64,000 bases of DNA from a virus, in IMG/VR virus record IMGVR_UViG_3300021963_000115, positions 1 through 64,000 of that record, one strand, 5' to 3'. The position numbers and the translations under genes were made by a program. The notes beneath the pieces are model-generated. The model was not told where the DNA came from. It made no database searches and worked only from the letters and a program-made list of their open reading frames with translations. Position 1 is the stretch's first letter; the number at the start of each line of letters is the position of its first letter. This document shows, piece by piece, positions 21,985 to 32,270 of this stretch.

Positions 21985-22896
21985 ATGGCTATTTCACGCG
22001 CACAACTACTTAAAGAACTCCTGCCCGGCTTGAATGCTTTGTTCGGTTTGGAATACTCTCGTTACGGAGAAGAGCACAAAGAGATCTACGAAACAGAGAC
22101 CTCTGAGCGTTCATTCGAAGAAGAGACCAAACTGTCTGGCTTCTCTGCTGCTCCTGTTAAGGCTGAAGGCTCTGCCATCGCTTATGACAATGCACAAGAG
22201 GCATGGACAACGCGATACAACCACGAAACCATTGCTTTGGGTTTCTCAATCACTGAAGAAGCGATTGAAGATAACTTGTACGACAGCTTGTCTGCTCGTT
22301 ACACCAAAGGTTTGGCTCGTGCAATGTCTTACACCAAGCAGGTTAAAGCCGCTTCTGTGTTGAACAACGGTTTCTCCGCTGCTTATCCCGGCGGTGACGG
22401 CGTGGCATTGTTCTCTACGCAGCACCCCTTGGTCAACGGCGACCGTAACGCCAATACTCCCTCTACTCAAGCTGATTTGAACGAGACTTCTTTGGAAGCC
22501 GCCGTTATTCAAATCGCTGCTTGGACGGATGAGCGTGGCCTGTTGATTGCCGCTAAACCCAAGAAGTTAATCATTCCACCAGCATTGCAATTTGTTGCAA
22601 CCCGCTTGTTGGAAACTGAACTTCGCGTCGGTACAAACAACAACGACATTAATGCCATCAAGAACAACGGTTCAATCTCTGAAGGTTATACCGTTAACCA
22701 CTTCTTGACCGACACTAATGCTTGGTTCTTGACAACTGACGTACCTAACGGTCTAAAGCACTTCATTCGTACCCCCTTGCAAAACAGCATGGATGGTGAC
22801 TTTGATACCGGCAACGTCCGTTACAAAGCCCGCGAGCGTTACAGCTTTGGCTGGTCTGATCCTCTGGGCATTTTTGGCTCATCAGGTTCGTTCTAA
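21985..22896 (+). CDS. Major capsid protein
   Basis: 303 residues resembling the Mu gpT-type HK97-fold capsid proteins. Features are the helical N-terminal arm, the YETETSERSFEEE segment, LGFSITEEAIEDNLYDSL (about 85-105), FSTQHPLVNG (about 138-147) and LIIPPALQFVATRLL (about 190-205). It is followed at once by a strong terminator, as expected for the most abundant virion protein. Confidence 0.88.
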   Translation: MAISRAQLLKELLPGLNALFGLEYSRYGEEHKEIYETETSERSFEEETKLSGFSAAPVKAEGSAIAYDNAQEAWTTRYNHETIALGFSITEEAIEDNLYDSLSARYTKGLARAMSYTKQVKAASVLNNGFSAAYPGGDGVALFSTQHPLVNGDRNANTPSTQADLNETSLEAAVIQIAAWTDERGLLIAAKPKKLIIPPALQFVATRLLETELRVGTNNNDINAIKNNGSISEGYTVNHFLTDTNAWFLTTDVPNGLKHFIRTPLQNSMDGDFDTGNVRYKARERYSFGWSDPLGIFGSSGSF

Positions 22897-26632: not shown

Positions 26633-26878
26633 ATGGCTAAGAGTCCAGCATGGCAGAGGAAAGAAGGGAAGAACCCCAAAGGCGGCTTGAACGCCAAGGG
26701 GCGAGCCTCCGCGAAAAAGCAAGGCATGAACTTGAAACCGCCCCAGCCAGAAGGCGGCTCCCGGCGCGACTCTTTTTGTGCGAGGATGGAAGGGATGAAG
26801 AAGAAACTCACGTCCCCAAAGACCGCCAAAGACCCAGACTCACGCATAAACAAATCACTTAGAGCATGGAAGTGCTAA
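26633..26878 (+). CDS. Small basic protein (DUF6321-like)
   Basis: 81 residues: PAWQRKEGKNPKGGLNAKGR at the start, then RRDSFCARMEGMKKKLTS and DPDSRINKSLRAWKC. This tripartite pattern is the widely distributed phage family that I believe is catalogued as DUF6321. Function unknown; the strong positive charge suggests contact with packaged DNA or capsid interior. Confidence 0.75.
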   Translation: MAKSPAWQRKEGKNPKGGLNAKGRASAKKQGMNLKPPQPEGGSRRDSFCARMEGMKKKLTSPKTAKDPDSRINKSLRAWKC

Positions 26879-27069: not shown

Positions 27070-27477
27070 ATGCCAAGTACAAGCAAAAAACAACACAATT
27101 TCATGGAAGCGGTGGCCCACAACCCAGCGTTTGCCAAGAAAGCAGGCGTCCCACAGTCCGTGGGCAAAGACTTTTCAGCGGCTGATAAAGGTCGTAAATT
27201 TGCAAAAGGTGGTGATACTATGGCTTCTAAGATGAACCCCGGTTTTATGGCAATGATGGCCAAGAAAAAAGGCGCAACCAAAATGGCCGATGGCGGTATG
27301 AAACACGAAGACGTTAAAAAAGACAAAGGCATGATGCAAAAAGCCGTGAACAAACACGAAGGCCGTTTGCACAAAGGTCAGCCTATGACCAAGCTAGCTA
27401 AAGGTGGCGGCATCGAGACCAAAGGTAAAACCAAAGGCACCATGGTCAAAATGAACATGGGCGGTAAAGCCTGCTAA
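27070..27477 (+). CDS. Basic Gly-rich virion-associated protein (putative)
   Basis: 135 residues from the ATG at 27070. Starts MPSTSKKQHNFMEAVAHNPA and VPQSVGKDFSAADKGRKF, a motif recurrent in aquatic phage proteins, then Lys/Met/Gly-rich sequence with several GG motifs (FAKGGD, MADGG, LAKGGG) and a KGKTKGTMV end. Related end motifs occur in the following genes. Confidence 0.7.
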   Translation: MPSTSKKQHNFMEAVAHNPAFAKKAGVPQSVGKDFSAADKGRKFAKGGDTMASKMNPGFMAMMAKKKGATKMADGGMKHEDVKKDKGMMQKAVNKHEGRLHKGQPMTKLAKGGGIETKGKTKGTMVKMNMGGKAC

Positions 27478-27487
27478 AGGAACAATC

Positions 27488-28585
27488 ATGGCACGTAAAG
27501 GCAGGGGTAGTGATTTAGCAGGACTCGCAGCGCTTGGCGCTCTTGGTTACATGCTGTCTAAAGGTAGCAAAGCGGCTCCTACTGGCGGTAGTGGTGGAGA
27601 AAAAATGCCTACACCCGCAGTAGAAGCACCTTTAATTACTGATGATATGCGTAGACGCGCCAAAGAAGAAGGCGAAAAAATTTCTGAAGGTGAACGTATA
27701 TCTAGTATGAGCGCTAGTAAACCCGCAGATAAACCCGCTACAGCAAAGCCAGCAGAAACAGCTAAGCCAGCATCTACAGCTAAACCTTCAGCTGAAACAG
27801 GCTACTTAAAGAATCCCGGTGCAGTAAGTCCTTCTGTAGGCAATCAACGTGGTCCTACCGCTGAAGAACTTGCAGCATATAACGCTAGCCGTAGAAAAAA
27901 CCCCGGCACTGGTAACCAGCGCGGCCCTACTGCTGAAGAACTTGAAGCTTATGCCGCTAGTCGTAGGCGCCCAACAGCTGTAAATACTGGCTCAGTAAGA
28001 GACATTCCAACTGGCGGTCCCGCTGGTTGGCAAGGTGGCCAAGGCGAGAAGATTGATAGCACAGAACTAGGCCGTCAATTTGGCAACACATTAGCAGCTG
28101 CTGGTCCCGGTAAGTTATCTGGTGTTAGCAAAATTGGCTACGAAATGCGTAATGCCGATGCAATTCGTAAAGCGGCTTTGGCTGGTGAAGTCCCCTCACG
28201 TGGACGCGAGGCCGTTACCAATCCAATGATGTGGATGGGCGGTCCTAAAAATGTAGGAAAATTTGCCGAAGACGTACCTTCTGCTGGACGCGAGGCCGTA
28301 ACTAATCCTATGGCTTGGATGGCTGGCCCCAAAGGAATGGCTCAAATGAATGAAGCCGCCCCTAGCATGACTACTAGGGCCAAAGAAGCTGCTGAAGCCG
28401 CCGCCGCTCGATTTAGAAAGAAACCTCTGTCTGAGGCCGATACAACTGGTGGCGCAGGTAGATACGGCTACAAAAAAGGTGGCGCTGTTAAAAAGAAAAT
28501 GGCGTCGGGTGGTATGACTGGTAGCGCTTCCAAACGCGCTGATGGCATTGCCTCCAAAGGAAAAACTCGCGGTAAGATTTGTTAA
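27488..28585 (+). CDS. Repeat-containing protein with RADG...KGKTRGK C-terminal motif
   Basis: 365 residues, low complexity. Internal duplications: NQRGPTAEELAAYNASRR and NQRGPTAEELEAYAASRR (about 118-160), and GREAVTNPMMWMGGPK and GREAVTNPMAWMAGPK (about 238-280). Ala/Lys/Pro-rich linkers. The C-terminus is KKMASGG then KRADGIASKGKTRGKIC, shared with the next gene. Probably a virion-internal or assembly protein; function not known. Confidence 0.7.
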   Translation: MARKGRGSDLAGLAALGALGYMLSKGSKAAPTGGSGGEKMPTPAVEAPLITDDMRRRAKEEGEKISEGERISSMSASKPADKPATAKPAETAKPASTAKPSAETGYLKNPGAVSPSVGNQRGPTAEELAAYNASRRKNPGTGNQRGPTAEELEAYAASRRRPTAVNTGSVRDIPTGGPAGWQGGQGEKIDSTELGRQFGNTLAAAGPGKLSGVSKIGYEMRNADAIRKAALAGEVPSRGREAVTNPMMWMGGPKNVGKFAEDVPSAGREAVTNPMAWMAGPKGMAQMNEAAPSMTTRAKEAAEAAAARFRKKPLSEADTTGGAGRYGYKKGGAVKKKMASGGMTGSASKRADGIASKGKTRGKIC

Positions 28586-28594
28586 GGAAATAAT

Positions 28595-28852
28595 ATGCCA
28601 ATGACACCCGAAGCAGCTAAAAAATACAAGCCCCGTCGTACGCCTGAGTCTTTAGACGAGGTCATCTATCCTGAAACTCGTGCAAAAATGCAAGAGGCCA
28701 AGGCAGATGTTGCCGACGTTAAAGCTTCAGCCGAAGCCGGTGCGCAGTACGACAAAATTGTAGGTAAAGCCGGGGGCGGTTCTGTAGGTTCTGCCTCCAC
28801 CCGTGCTGACGGCTGCTGCACCAAGGGCAAGACCCGCGGTAAGATGGTGTAA
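28595..28852 (+). CDS. Small protein with RADG...KGKTRGK C-terminal motif
   Basis: 85 residues; helical middle, then AGGGSVGSASTRADGCCTKG and KTRGKMV. The same C-terminal tag as the preceding protein on an otherwise unrelated body. AAGGAAATAAT ribosome site. Confidence 0.7.
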   Translation: MPMTPEAAKKYKPRRTPESLDEVIYPETRAKMQEAKADVADVKASAEAGAQYDKIVGKAGGGSVGSASTRADGCCTKGKTRGKMV

Positions 28853-28854
28853 CC

Positions 28855-29130
28855 ATGATGGCCAGCCGTGGAATGGGGGCAGTTGCCCCCTCTAAAATGC
28901 CAAAGGGTAAGAAGACTGCCCGTCGGGATGACACGGACTTCACACAATACGCCGCTGGTGGTAAAGTAAATGCGGCTGGCAATTACACAAAACCCAGTCT
29001 TCGTAAGAGGATTGTGTCCCAAGTAAAAGCAGCGGCTACGCAAGGTACAGGTGCAGGGCAATGGTCAGCACGTAAGGCTCAACTTGTTGCTAAGAAGTAC
29101 AAGGAAGCTGGGGGTTCTTATCGTGACTAA
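28855..29130 (+). CDS. Small basic conserved-type phage protein
   Basis: 91 residues: MAS..KMPKGKKTARRDD, then YAAGGKVNAAGNYTKPSLRK and GAGQWSARKAQLVAKKYKEA. The last segment recurs in phage proteins of unknown function. Highly basic; DNA or capsid contact is inferred only from charge. Confidence 0.72.
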   Translation: MMASRGMGAVAPSKMPKGKKTARRDDTDFTQYAAGGKVNAAGNYTKPSLRKRIVSQVKAAATQGTGAGQWSARKAQLVAKKYKEAGGSYRD

Positions 29131-29560
29131 GATTTGCTTGAAATGTAATTCTGAGAAACCGTTAGAAGACTTTTACAAGTTTTTTGACAAGTGGTCAGAC
29201 AAGCACTATTCAAGCGCCCGTTGCAAACCTTGCCATCAAGAATACAAACGTGAAAGCCCAACTACCCCACGCAATCGCAAGGCGGAAAAATTACAGTTGC
29301 GGTACGGGTTAACTTACGAGCAGTGGGAACAAATGCGATTAAATGAAGGGCATGCTTGTATGATATGCGGCATAACCGAAGATGAGATTGACAAAAAACT
29401 TGATGTGGATCATTGCCATACAAGTGGGAAAGTTCGTGGTATTTTGTGTAATCCATGCAACAATATGATTGGGCATGCTAAAGACAACATTGAAGCATTG
29501 CGTGCGGCTGCGGATTATCTTGAACAAAATGCAAATGGGTACAAAGGTTTTGAAGCATGA
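29123..29560 (+). CDS. Recombination endonuclease VII-like HNH nuclease
   Basis: 145 residues from a GTG that overlaps the upstream stop. It contains zinc-binding pairs CLKC and CKPC near the N-terminus and the core HACMICG...LDVDHCHTSGKVRGILCNPC-N, the hallmark of T4 gp49-type endonuclease VII (ββα-metal fold; DVDHCH is the active-site segment). Such enzymes resolve branched DNA before packaging or act as free-standing homing HNHs. The location within head genes allows either. Confidence 0.85.
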   Translation: MTKICLKCNSEKPLEDFYKFFDKWSDKHYSSARCKPCHQEYKRESPTTPRNRKAEKLQLRYGLTYEQWEQMRLNEGHACMICGITEDEIDKKLDVDHCHTSGKVRGILCNPCNNMIGHAKDNIEALRAAADYLEQNANGYKGFEA

Positions 29561-29790
29561 AAGCGCCGCAACAATCCCTTAAAGATTGGGGCGACCAGAA
29601 ATGGAGAACCAAAAGTGGCAAACGCTCTTCTGACACGGGTGAAAGATACCTTCCTAGTGCTGCGATTAAAAGTCTCAGCCCTGCTGAGTACGCTGCGACA
29701 ACGCGTGCAAAACGTGCTGGCAAAAAAGCCGGACAACAATTCGTAAACCAACCAAAAACCATCGCTAAAAAAACAGCGCAGTTTAGGTAA
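29557..29790 (+). CDS. Small basic conserved-type protein
   Basis: 77 residues: QQSLKDWGDQKWRTKSGKRS, GERYLPSAAIKSLSPAEYAA and a Lys/Arg/Gln-rich tail. The pattern is common in phage genomes and has no assigned function that I can state. ATGA overlap with the nuclease. Confidence 0.72.
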   Translation: MKAPQQSLKDWGDQKWRTKSGKRSSDTGERYLPSAAIKSLSPAEYAATTRAKRAGKKAGQQFVNQPKTIAKKTAQFR

Positions 29791-29809
29791 CACTGTGTAA
29801 GGAACTAAG

Positions 29810-30028
29810 ATGAACCTCAATATTATTTTAATGTGCGCTCAAATGGCGGCACGCCAACAAGCTGCTGCGTTGGGCTGTGTAGACGCTGACGTCCAAGCCC
29901 TGATTGATGAAGTGGAGTCTTTGTTGGCCCCAGATCCAGTGGTTGAAGAAGCCCCAGTGGTTGAAGAAGCCCCAGTGGTTGAAGAAGCCCCAGTGGTTGA
30001 AGAAGCCCCCACCCCTACAGACGAGTAA
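29810..30028 (+). CDS. Small protein with PVVEEA tandem repeats
   Basis: 72 residues: a helical N-terminal 40 residues, then four copies of PVVEEA and a short acidic tail. The copies are identical at the DNA level, so the number may vary between relatives. Confidence 0.65.
   Translation: MNLNIILMCAQMAARQQAAALGCVDADVQALIDEVESLLAPDPVVEEAPVVEEAPVVEEAPVVEEAPTPTDE
29936..30007 (+). repeat. 18-bp tandem repeat, 4 copies
   Basis: CCAGTGGTTGAAGAAGCC repeated four times without mismatch inside the gene at 29810. Confidence 0.9.
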
Positions 30029-30031
30029 TTT

Positions 30032-30730
30032 ATGGCCACCTCCGGAATCGCATCGTTCAACATGGACCTCACGGAAATTGTGGAGGAAGCATTTGAGCGT
30101 GCTGGTTCGGAGTTGCGTACTGGTTATGACTTAAAGACAGCAAGGCGGTCTTTAAACCTGATGTTTGCTGAATGGGCAAACAAAGGGTTGAACATGTTTA
30201 CGTATGAACAGGGCAGCATTACGCTAGTGCCCGGTACGGCTACATACAATTTACCAGCAGATACAGTAGATTTGCTAGAGCATGTTATTCGCACAGGCGC
30301 TGGTAATACCGCTACGCAAGCAGATTTGACTATTACACGTATTAGTGTTTCTACTTACGCCACAATCCCAAACAAGCTGCAACAGGCTCGACCTATTCAA
30401 GTTTGGATACAACGTCTAGTGGATAACCCTAGTATTACTGTTTGGCCTGTTCCTGATGACTCACAAACGTATACGTTTGTGTACTGGCGTTTACGCCGTA
30501 TCCAAGATGCTGGAACAGGTGTCAACACAATGGATTTACCATTCCGTTTCCTTCCTTGTATGGTTGCGGGCCTTGCATATCATTTGGCATTAAAAGTACC
30601 AACAGGCGCAGAACGTTTGCCTATTTTGAAACAGCAGTACGATGAAGCATGGGATTTAGCTTCTAGCGAAGATCGTGAAAAAGCGGCAGTTCGCTTCGTA
30701 CCTCGTCAGCAGTATATTGGGGGCACCTGA
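30032..30730 (+). CDS. Head-tail adaptor, P22 gp4-like (putative)
   Basis: 232 residues. Helical N-terminus with VEEAFERAGSE and RRSLNLMFAEWANKGLNMFT (about 40-60), a beta middle (YNLPADTVDLLEH), and a C-terminal helix. This is the layout of the P22 tail accessory factor gp4 that docks below the portal ring. Size and position (after head genes, before tail genes) agree. Confidence 0.7.
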   Translation: MATSGIASFNMDLTEIVEEAFERAGSELRTGYDLKTARRSLNLMFAEWANKGLNMFTYEQGSITLVPGTATYNLPADTVDLLEHVIRTGAGNTATQADLTITRISVSTYATIPNKLQQARPIQVWIQRLVDNPSITVWPVPDDSQTYTFVYWRLRRIQDAGTGVNTMDLPFRFLPCMVAGLAYHLALKVPTGAERLPILKQQYDEAWDLASSEDREKAAVRFVPRQQYIGGT

Positions 30731-31113
30731 TGGGTAATCGGTTTGCTTCTGGCAAAATTGCAATTGCAGAGTGCGACCGCTGCGGGGAACGCTTTAAACT
30801 AAAACTGCTAAAACGTGAGATTATCAAAACCAAGAACTACGACCTCTTGGTATGCCCTGAGTGTTGGGACCCAGATCAACCTCAGTTGCAATTAGGTATG
30901 TACCCAGTGGATGATCCGCAGGGTCTAAGGAACCCACGTCCTGACAGAAGTTATGTGACGTCTGGTTTGAATGCAAACGGAAACCCTTCTGGAGGTTCAC
31001 GGGACATTCAATGGGGTTGGGGGCCGGTTGGCGGCGCTAGCAGTTTTGATACAGTTTTAACACCAAACTACTTGGTTTCTCGCGCAAGTGTTGGTACAGT
31101 CACAATATCTTAA
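30730..31113 (+). CDS. Zinc-ribbon structural protein (putative)
   Basis: 127 residues. AECDRCGERF (CxxC near residue 14) and VCPECWDP (CxxC near 45) make a zinc ribbon, followed by a Gly/Ser/Asn-rich extended tail. Lies between the two adaptor-like genes; such ribbons may brace head-tail joining proteins. It overlaps the upstream stop by one base. Confidence 0.65.
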   Translation: MGNRFASGKIAIAECDRCGERFKLKLLKREIIKTKNYDLLVCPECWDPDQPQLQLGMYPVDDPQGLRNPRPDRSYVTSGLNANGNPSGGSRDIQWGWGPVGGASSFDTVLTPNYLVSRASVGTVTIS

Positions 31114-31124
31114 GGAGTTATTTC

Positions 31125-31307
31125 ATGGCATACACAAAAGCAGCAGACGGCGTCGCCAGAAAAGGTAAAACTAACGCCCAAATTATGGCCAATGATGGGC
31201 CCACCGCGGCTAATCCTCGCGGTGGTAAAAGCAAAAAGGGCGGCCCAACTGGCCAACAAATGCGTGCCGTAGGCCGTAACATGGCTCGTGCTAATAACCA
31301 AAAGTGA
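31125..31307 (+). CDS. Very basic small protein with ADG...KGKT motif
   Basis: 60 residues: TKAADGVARKGKTNAQIMAN at the front, then KSKKGGPTGQQMRAVGRNMA. The front half is a variant of the tag found at the C-termini of the 27488 and 28595 products. Function unknown. Confidence 0.68.
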   Translation: MAYTKAADGVARKGKTNAQIMANDGPTAANPRGGKSKKGGPTGQQMRAVGRNMARANNQK

Positions 31308-31315
31308 GGTTATTC

Positions 31316-31582
31316 ATGGCCAAATACAGCCGAAAATTAATGGGTAAAGAAGTTGGCAGTGCCGACGTTTATGCGGAGCCTCATACTATGACTGGTAAAA
31401 AAGTAGCAATTCAATCTAATCCCGGCAAGCCTTCTGATATTTCAGAAACTAGCTCAATGCGCATGAGTGTTGGTAATTACAACAACCCTAAAAACGCTCC
31501 AACCACTAAGACCAGCGGTATCAAGATTCGTGGCACAGGCGCGGCTACCAAAGGCACGATGGCTCGTGGCCCAATGGCTTGA
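31316..31582 (+). CDS. Small basic protein
   Basis: 88 residues from the ATG at 31316 (a GTG at 31304 overlaps the upstream gene and is less likely). Lys/Ser/Gly-rich, ends KIRGTGAATKGTMARGPMA, again related to the KGKT tag. Function unknown. Confidence 0.65.
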   Translation: MAKYSRKLMGKEVGSADVYAEPHTMTGKKVAIQSNPGKPSDISETSSMRMSVGNYNNPKNAPTTKTSGIKIRGTGAATKGTMARGPMA

Positions 31583-31592
31583 GGATTAACTC

Positions 31593-32270
31593 ATGGCGAT
31601 GACTTATGCACAGCTTGTAACGCAAGTATCTGATTATTGTGAGAACACGTTTCCCACAGTTAATATAGACACGTTCATTCGACAGGCTGAACAGCGCATC
31701 TATAACACGGTGCAGCTGGCTAATCTTCGCAAAAATGTTACTGGCACTATCACCGCGACAAACAAATATTTATCAGCTCCAGATGATTTTTTATCGGTTT
31801 ACTCAATTGCGGCTTATCCAGTTGCGGGCGGTGATTACATATATTTGTTGAATAAAGATGTAAACTTTATTCGTGAAGCGTATCCAAACCCATCATCTAC
31901 AGGAACACCAAAATACTACGCAATCTTTGGTCCAACCACTACCGCGCTTGGCGCTGTTACCAATGAGTTGTCTTTTATTGTTGGTCCAACACCTTCAATT
32001 GCATATTCTGTAGAGCTGCACTATTACTATTATCCTGAGTCTATTGTGACTGCTGGCCAAACATGGTTAGGTGATAATTTTGACTCTGCATTGTTATACG
32101 GTTCTTTGTGTGAAGCAGCAGTGTTTATGAAAAGCGGGCCTGACGACGCAATGTACACAACATACCAAGCGCGTTATAACGAGGCTATGGGCATGCTTAA
32201 AAACTTGGGTGATGGCAAACAGCGCGGTGATGCGTACCGAAATGGCCAAACTAGGGTTCCCGCACAATGA
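31593..32270 (+). CDS. Adaptor-type structural protein (SU10-adaptor-like, putative)
   Basis: 225 residues: helical start with MTYAQLVTQVSDYCENTFPT and FIRQAEQRIYN, a beta domain (about 50-140), then helical C-terminus. This pattern resembles adaptor proteins that follow the portal in SU10-like podoviruses. With the gp4-like gene it suggests a two-ring connector. Assignment by resemblance only. Confidence 0.62.
   Translation: MAMTYAQLVTQVSDYCENTFPTVNIDTFIRQAEQRIYNTVQLANLRKNVTGTITATNKYLSAPDDFLSVYSIAAYPVAGGDYIYLLNKDVNFIREAYPNPSSTGTPKYYAIFGPTTTALGAVTNELSFIVGPTPSIAYSVELHYYYYPESIVTAGQTWLGDNFDSALLYGSLCEAAVFMKSGPDDAMYTTYQARYNEAMGMLKNLGDGKQRGDAYRNGQTRVPAQ

What the first reader, a model, noticed from the sequence alone, without database searches (positions are those of the whole stretch)
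27420..31582. Shared KGKTRGK-type tag on several unrelated small proteins
RADG-x3-KGKTRGK-x occurs at the C-terminus of the 365-aa (28585) and 85-aa (28852) proteins, with variants in the 27477, 31125 and 31582 products. The bodies are otherwise unrelated, so the tag is a movable module. A signal for capsid entry, scaffold or DNA binding would explain this.
Basis: partly seen in the sequence, partly recalled or inferred. Interest (0 to 1): 0.62.

Follow-up and report, generated by a model that had tools for sequence, protein, structure and literature searches.

The report
Swappable C-terminal tag on phage proteins
A large family of mostly uncultured phages puts the same roughly 20-amino-acid tail on many otherwise unrelated small proteins encoded next to the shell gene, most likely as an address label that loads them into the virus particle.

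Summary
Two window proteins (27488-28585, 28595-28852) end in SAS[KT]RADG[IC][AC]xKGKTRGK[IM][CV]. A capped DNA-pattern scan of IMG/VR gave 195 tagged ORFs; 172 of 194 carry the motif exactly three residues from the stop. Bodies are unrelated: 80 cluster representatives align only over the tag, and 0 of 101 tagged pairs from one locus share detectable body similarity. The module moves: DUF6321 proteins end untagged in 68 cases and with the tag appended in 13, on near-identical bodies. Codons vary synonymously, so selection acts on the peptide. The tag is essentially confined to one Pam1/HTVC023P-like podovirus lineage. On MCP-bearing loci all 185 tag ORFs lie on the MCP strand, 0.6-7.1 kb downstream, nearly always before the neck adaptor. 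Bodies look disordered, basic and hypervariable. Best reading: a C-terminal capsid-targeting tag that works like the N-terminal CTS of T4 internal proteins. Packaging and receptor are inferred, not shown. One isolate, Planktothrix phage Pag-Yong1, encodes a tagged protein, so a direct test is possible.

The parts
27488..28585 (+). 365-aa tagged protein; tag SASKRADGIASKGKTRGKIC at 28523-28582
   Evidence: relatives with the same hydrophobic N-terminus also tagged
28595..28852 (+). 85-aa tagged protein; tag SASTRADGCCTKGKTRGKMV at 28790-28849
   Evidence: three homologous tagged proteins; AF2 model low confidence, tag without secondary structure
27070..27477 (+). 135-aa protein with phrog_16759 N-terminal module and the longer C-terminal variant GGGIETKGKTKGTMVKMNMGGKAC (27403-27474)
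31125..31307 (+). 60-aa protein with the core motif (ADGVARKGKT, 31143-31172) at its N-terminus
   Evidence: family of 17 N-terminal-motif ORFs
26633..26878 (+). DUF6321 protein, untagged here; tagged in 13 relatives
   Evidence: PF19846, 70 bits; tag gain/loss
21985..22896 (+). major capsid protein, lineage marker and candidate (inferred) receptor
   Evidence: PF25209/PF10124; 83-87% identical in five tagged genomes
28855..29130 (+). small basic neighbour, phrog_17747, no tag
29557..29790 (+). small basic neighbour, phrog_14910, no tag
30032..30730 (+). SU10-type adaptor that bounds the tag cluster downstream
   Evidence: PF24175; 272 tag ORFs upstream of it, 5 downstream

Best explanation
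The ~20-residue C-terminal tag (consensus [ST]AS[KS]R[AG]DG[IC]Ax[KR]G[KH]T[KR]G[KR][MIF][VCI]-stop, after a Gly-Gly linker) is a sorting signal that carries a fast-changing set of small, basic, mostly disordered proteins into the assembling head of this podovirus lineage. Steps: (1) the genes lie just downstream of the major capsid protein (shown) and are expressed late with the head genes (inferred); (2) the free tail binds one shared site on the prohead, most likely the inner face of the capsid protein or its scaffold (inferred); (3) the tagged proteins are enclosed with the DNA and perhaps injected into the next host, where the variable bodies act (inferred). It works like the capsid targeting sequence of T4 internal proteins, but sits at the C-terminus and has no shown relation to it.
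For: Strict position: 172/194 exactly 3 aa from the stop. Selection on the peptide: free synonymous variation. Unrelated bodies: 75 groups of 179, only the tail shared among 80 representatives, 0/101 within-locus pairs similar. Gain/loss on DUF6321. Gene place: 185/185 on the MCP strand, 0.57-7.07 kb downstream, 272 before vs 5 after the adaptor. Present in some form in all 29 MCP-anchored loci with >=6 kb downstream, 24 by strict patterns. Basic bodies (+4.8 per 100 aa), like the T4 internal proteins, which are basic, diverse and share only a CTS (PMC3012670; PMC9026906). Tags of one locus slightly more alike than between loci (5.72 vs 6.74 differences per 20 aa, permutation p=2e-4), as a shared partner would give.
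Against: No virion proteomics or binding data. Most bodies look disordered, unlike a set of folded effectors. No conserved protease site beside the tag. Tag similarity within loci could come from gene conversion, since synonymous differences are also a little lower (51% vs 58%). No unique partner gene was found. Confinement to one lineage is also what plain common descent predicts.
Confidence: 0.5

Rival explanations
1. The tag is a nucleic-acid-binding tail: tagged proteins are protamine-like condensers of phage or host nucleic acid and enter the head, if at all, by binding DNA.
For: Tag charge about +6 in 26 aa, basic bodies; other small basic proteins encoded alongside.
Against: The tag keeps specific uncharged and acidic residues (D-14, G-13, G-8, T-6) and a fixed distance to the C-terminus, more than charge alone needs; the acidic residue is invariant.
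Confidence: 0.2
2. The tag anchors proteins to the outside of the capsid or to the neck, as decoration.
For: Genes lie between capsid/cement and adaptor genes.
Against: Bodies are short, disordered-looking and basic, not like known outer domains; no fold evidence either way.
Confidence: 0.1
3. The tail is a degradation or processing signal, for example for a host AAA+ protease that reads C-termini, and sets the lifetime of the tagged proteins.
For: Strict C-terminal position with a basic-plus-hydrophobic end; some known ClpX signals end in basic then hydrophobic residues (my own knowledge, not tested).
Against: Conservation extends about 20 residues, much longer than known C-terminal degrons (own knowledge); N-terminal and longer C-terminal versions exist.
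Confidence: 0.08
4. The tag is not functional as a protein signal; it is a recombination-prone sequence that lets new bodies be swapped in by homologous recombination.
For: Bodies turn over quickly; tags within one locus are slightly more alike, also at synonymous sites.
Against: Synonymous sites vary widely while the peptide is kept, which requires selection on the peptide.
Confidence: 0.05

Closest known systems
T4 internal proteins (IPI, IPII, IPIII, Alt) with the capsid targeting sequence (CTS)
   Same: One short conserved peptide on a diverse, poorly conserved set of small basic proteins; in T4 it loads them into the prohead core (PMC3012670; PMC9026906)
   Different: CTS is N-terminal, about 10 aa and removed by protease gp21; the tag here is C-terminal, about 20 aa, with no conserved Glu-containing cleavage site; different phage lineage; packaging not shown
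Encapsulin cargo-loading (targeting) peptides
   Same: Short C-terminal peptides that direct proteins into shells of capsid-like (HK97-fold) protein (PMC10960027, PMC8346489, abstracts; C-terminal position also own knowledge)
   Different: Encapsulin cargo are folded enzymes and the peptide sequences differ; shell here is a phage capsid; no binding shown
UMO75986.1 of Planktothrix phage Pag-Yong1
   Same: Ends GGMIGRDGCAKRGRTKGRFI; encoded between capsid and portal-adaptor genes of a phage with a 70% identical MCP
   Different: GRT instead of GKT, unrelated body, only one such protein seen in that interval

Membership tests
T4-type CTS / internal proteins | one conserved short peptide on otherwise divergent proteins | tested here: met
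T4-type CTS / internal proteins | peptide at the N-terminus | tested here: not met
   172/194 exactly 3 aa from the C-terminus; only the 60-aa family has it N-terminally
T4-type CTS / internal proteins | removed by the prohead protease at an L/I-x-E type site | tested here: not met
   no conserved Glu within the last 31 columns; a different protease specificity cannot be excluded
T4-type CTS / internal proteins | carriers are small basic proteins | tested here: met
   median body 98 aa, +4.8 per 100 aa
T4-type CTS / internal proteins | carriers are inside the virion and ejected | not testable with these tools
   needs virion mass spectrometry
Encapsulin cargo-loading peptide | short C-terminal position | tested here: met
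Encapsulin cargo-loading peptide | cargo are folded enzymes | tested here: not met
   bodies mostly on the disordered side of a charge-hydropathy index, no enzyme family matched
Encapsulin cargo-loading peptide | binds the inner face of the shell protein | not testable with these tools
   MCP model failed; no complex prediction available
Membrane or cell-wall C-terminal sorting signals (PEP-CTERM, LPXTG) | hydrophobic helix followed by a basic tail at the C-terminus | tested here: not met
   no hydrophobic stretch in the tag columns; only 11 of 404 class I proteins have any TM-like window

The most novel reading that the evidence does not exclude
An abundant phage lineage uses a general C-terminal cargo tag, read by its own highly conserved capsid protein, as a plug-in port: any ORF that acquires the ~20-residue tail is loaded into the particle and delivered to the next host, which explains the fast turnover of the bodies.
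Probability: 0.3. Interest if true: 0.85.

Novelty: new variant of a known kind. Interest (0 to 1): 0.62.

Why it matters
To my knowledge the T4 CTS is the main phage precedent in which one short transferable peptide loads many different proteins into a head. A second, C-terminal version in a very common environmental lineage would suggest that modular protein packaging is a more general phage strategy, would give a sequence handle for finding packaged or injected proteins among unannotated ORFs, and would make the idea directly testable, because a cultivated phage (Pag-Yong1) encodes one. Even without a function, the rule DG...G[KH]T[KR]G near the stop groups hundreds of ORFs that match almost no PHROG or Pfam family.

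Tried and rejected
tblastn of the 31-aa tag against INPHARED found nothing, yet Pag-Yong1 carries a copy, so short-query tblastn is blind here. A genome-wide K/H switch at tag position -7, which would have pointed to co-evolution with one partner, was suggested and rejected (55 of 192 multi-tag loci mix GKT and GHT). Search for partner genes that track the tag: homologues of 27070, 28855, 29557 and 31316 occur in most of five tagged IMG/VR genomes and not in the tagless relatives, but Pag-Yong1 lacks them, so no single partner emerged. A general membrane-segment role was rejected: 11 of 404 class I proteins have a TM-like window. Tag profile against the PDB: no match; MCP and adaptor against the PDB by sequence: no match. 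AF2 model of the 85-aa protein: low confidence (pLDDT 55); MCP model failed (pLDDT 30), so no fold search was run. Literature searches for the motif letters and for tag-like signals found nothing relevant. The 31582 C-terminus as the same tag: rejected.

Full report
Setting. The window is part of a 67,486-base virus record. Its terminase is closest to Phage DSL-LC04, phage 023Pt_psg01 and Pelagibacter phages HTVC027P/HTVC023P. Its major capsid protein (MCP, 21985-22896) is 70% identical to that of Planktothrix phage Pag-Yong1, and the region holds two SU10-type adaptors. It is therefore a podovirus of the Pam1/HTVC023P-like kind.

Observation. The 365-aa and 85-aa products end in SASKRADGIASKGKTRGKIC and SASTRADGCCTKGKTRGKMV. 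Translating these gave 195 tagged ORFs, 172 of 194 with the motif exactly three residues before the stop. In the 172 aligned tails D-14, G-13, G-8, K-7, T-6 and G-4 are fixed in part because the search asked for them. S-18, A-19, I/C-12, A-11 and the hydrophobic pair at -2/-1 were not asked for and are still strongly conserved. Third codon positions vary freely, so selection is on the peptide. The pattern read backwards gave no match in 36 records against 64 real matches.

The bodies. Without the tag, 179 bodies fall into 75 groups even with lenient chaining. Eighty representatives aligned together share nothing but KGGxVxSASxRADGIAxRGKTRGxMx. Among 101 pairs of tagged proteins on one locus none shows detectable body similarity. 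Only DUF6321 and the phrog_16759 module, with their related PHROGs, recur as known families; one weak extra PHROG and two weak Pfam hits aside, the rest match nothing. The clearest evidence for a movable module is DUF6321: 68 copies end at ...RAWNC, 13 carry tails such as ...ADGGYVTAADGCATKGKTKGRMV on bodies up to 98.7% identical, and 2 differ otherwise.

Variants. A longer class (about 10 or more residues after the core, often ending GGKAC) includes the window's 27070-27477 product. A ~60-aa family has the core at its N-terminus, including the 31125 product. A GHT subtype coexists with GKT in the same genomes. The 31316-31582 product has a different C-terminal motif. The cultivated Planktothrix phage Pag-Yong1 encodes UMO75986.1, ending GRDGCAKRGRTKGRFI, between its capsid and adaptor genes.

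Where it occurs. In a sample anchored on the MCP and chosen without regard to tags, 24 of 29 loci with at least 6 kb downstream have class I or II tags by strict patterns, and the other five carry GHT or truncated forms. Of 264 tagged loci, 256 hold at least one of four lineage markers; MCP identity is 67.9-94.6%, median 85.8%. Longer tagged records carried the MCP in 28 of 36 and 22 of 25 cases; in misses I looked at, such as G006 and G044, the tag cluster lies near a contig end. All 185 tag ORFs on MCP-bearing loci are on the MCP strand, 0.57-7.07 kb downstream, median 2.3 kb; 272 lie upstream and 5 downstream of the adaptor. In 84,980 cellular genomes there were three hits, all MAG contigs; one contig also carries an 85% identical MCP. 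Phages HTVC027P, 023Pt and DSL-LC04, with 63-64% identical MCPs, showed no tag among the small proteins I translated from this interval.

Character of the proteins. Bodies have a median of 98 aa and +4.8 charge per 100 aa, with very little Cys or Trp; 85% fall on the disordered side of a charge-hydropathy boundary against 25% of 20 control proteins. That index is crude and the control set small. The AF2 model of the 85-aa protein has low confidence and shows no structure in the tag.

Mechanism. A short, position-strict, peptide-conserved tail on unrelated, fast-changing proteins is what a sorting signal looks like. The placement of the carrier genes between capsid and neck genes points to the head as destination. 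The T4 CTS is the precedent: diverse internal proteins with only a conserved targeting sequence (PMC3012670), which may be a way for T4-like phages to take various proteins into their capsids (PMC9026906). That tags within a locus are slightly more alike fits a shared partner, but also gene conversion. The MCP is the most conserved of the larger head proteins compared across five tagged genomes (83-87%, where TerL is 45-66%), which makes it a plausible partner; this is inference. Virion presence, interior location, receptor and the action of the bodies are all untested.

Verdict. It works like a CTS but is not filed as one: two defining features (N-terminal position and the T4-type cleavage site) were tested and not met.

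Noticed in passing
window 26633-26878, 27070-27200, 28855-29130, 29557-29790: Neighbouring small basic modules are far more widespread than the tag: DUF6321 matches 525 phage records (mostly cyanophages and pelagiphages), and the phrog_16759 N-terminal module matches 124 records including phiKZ PHIKZ165.1. They look like further shared end-modules.
   Followed up: partly
records OL906435.1, OQ594354.1, PP438419.1: Three isolates named for different hosts (Planktothrix phage Pag-Yong1, Synechococcus phage MinM2, Planktothrix phage Pra-JY27) have the same record length (65,014) and a 100% identical tagged protein; possibly one phage under three names.
   Followed up: no
window 29129-29560: Endonuclease VII-like gene inside the tag cluster without a homologue in the eleven compared genomes; perhaps a recent homing insertion.
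   Followed up: no
window 29948-30012: Perfect tandem repeat encoding VVEEAP units in a 72-aa acidic protein (29810-30028).
   Followed up: no
window 30032-30730 and 31593-32270: Two different SU10-type adaptor proteins about 1 kb apart.
   Followed up: no
window 27488-28585: The 365-aa protein has internal repeats (NQRGPTAEEL.AY.ASRR twice; VPS.GREAVTNPM.WM.GPK twice) and a hydrophobic N-terminus shared with several tagged relatives.
   Followed up: partly
L123, L125: Phage sequence inside bacterial MAGs: a Chitinophagales contig carries the phage MCP and tags, and a Patulibacter contig reads a tag in frame with an acyltransferase-like ORF, which looks chimeric.
   Followed up: partly
L120, L270, L292 and others: GHT-type tags, often as GGVTRADGC[VI]xKGHTKG, coexist with GKT-type tags in one genome; the reason for two subtypes is unknown.
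   Followed up: partly
tagged proteins of all loci: Cys is nearly absent from the bodies (0.2%) but common in the tag (3.6%), where position -12 is about equally Cys or Ile.
   Followed up: no
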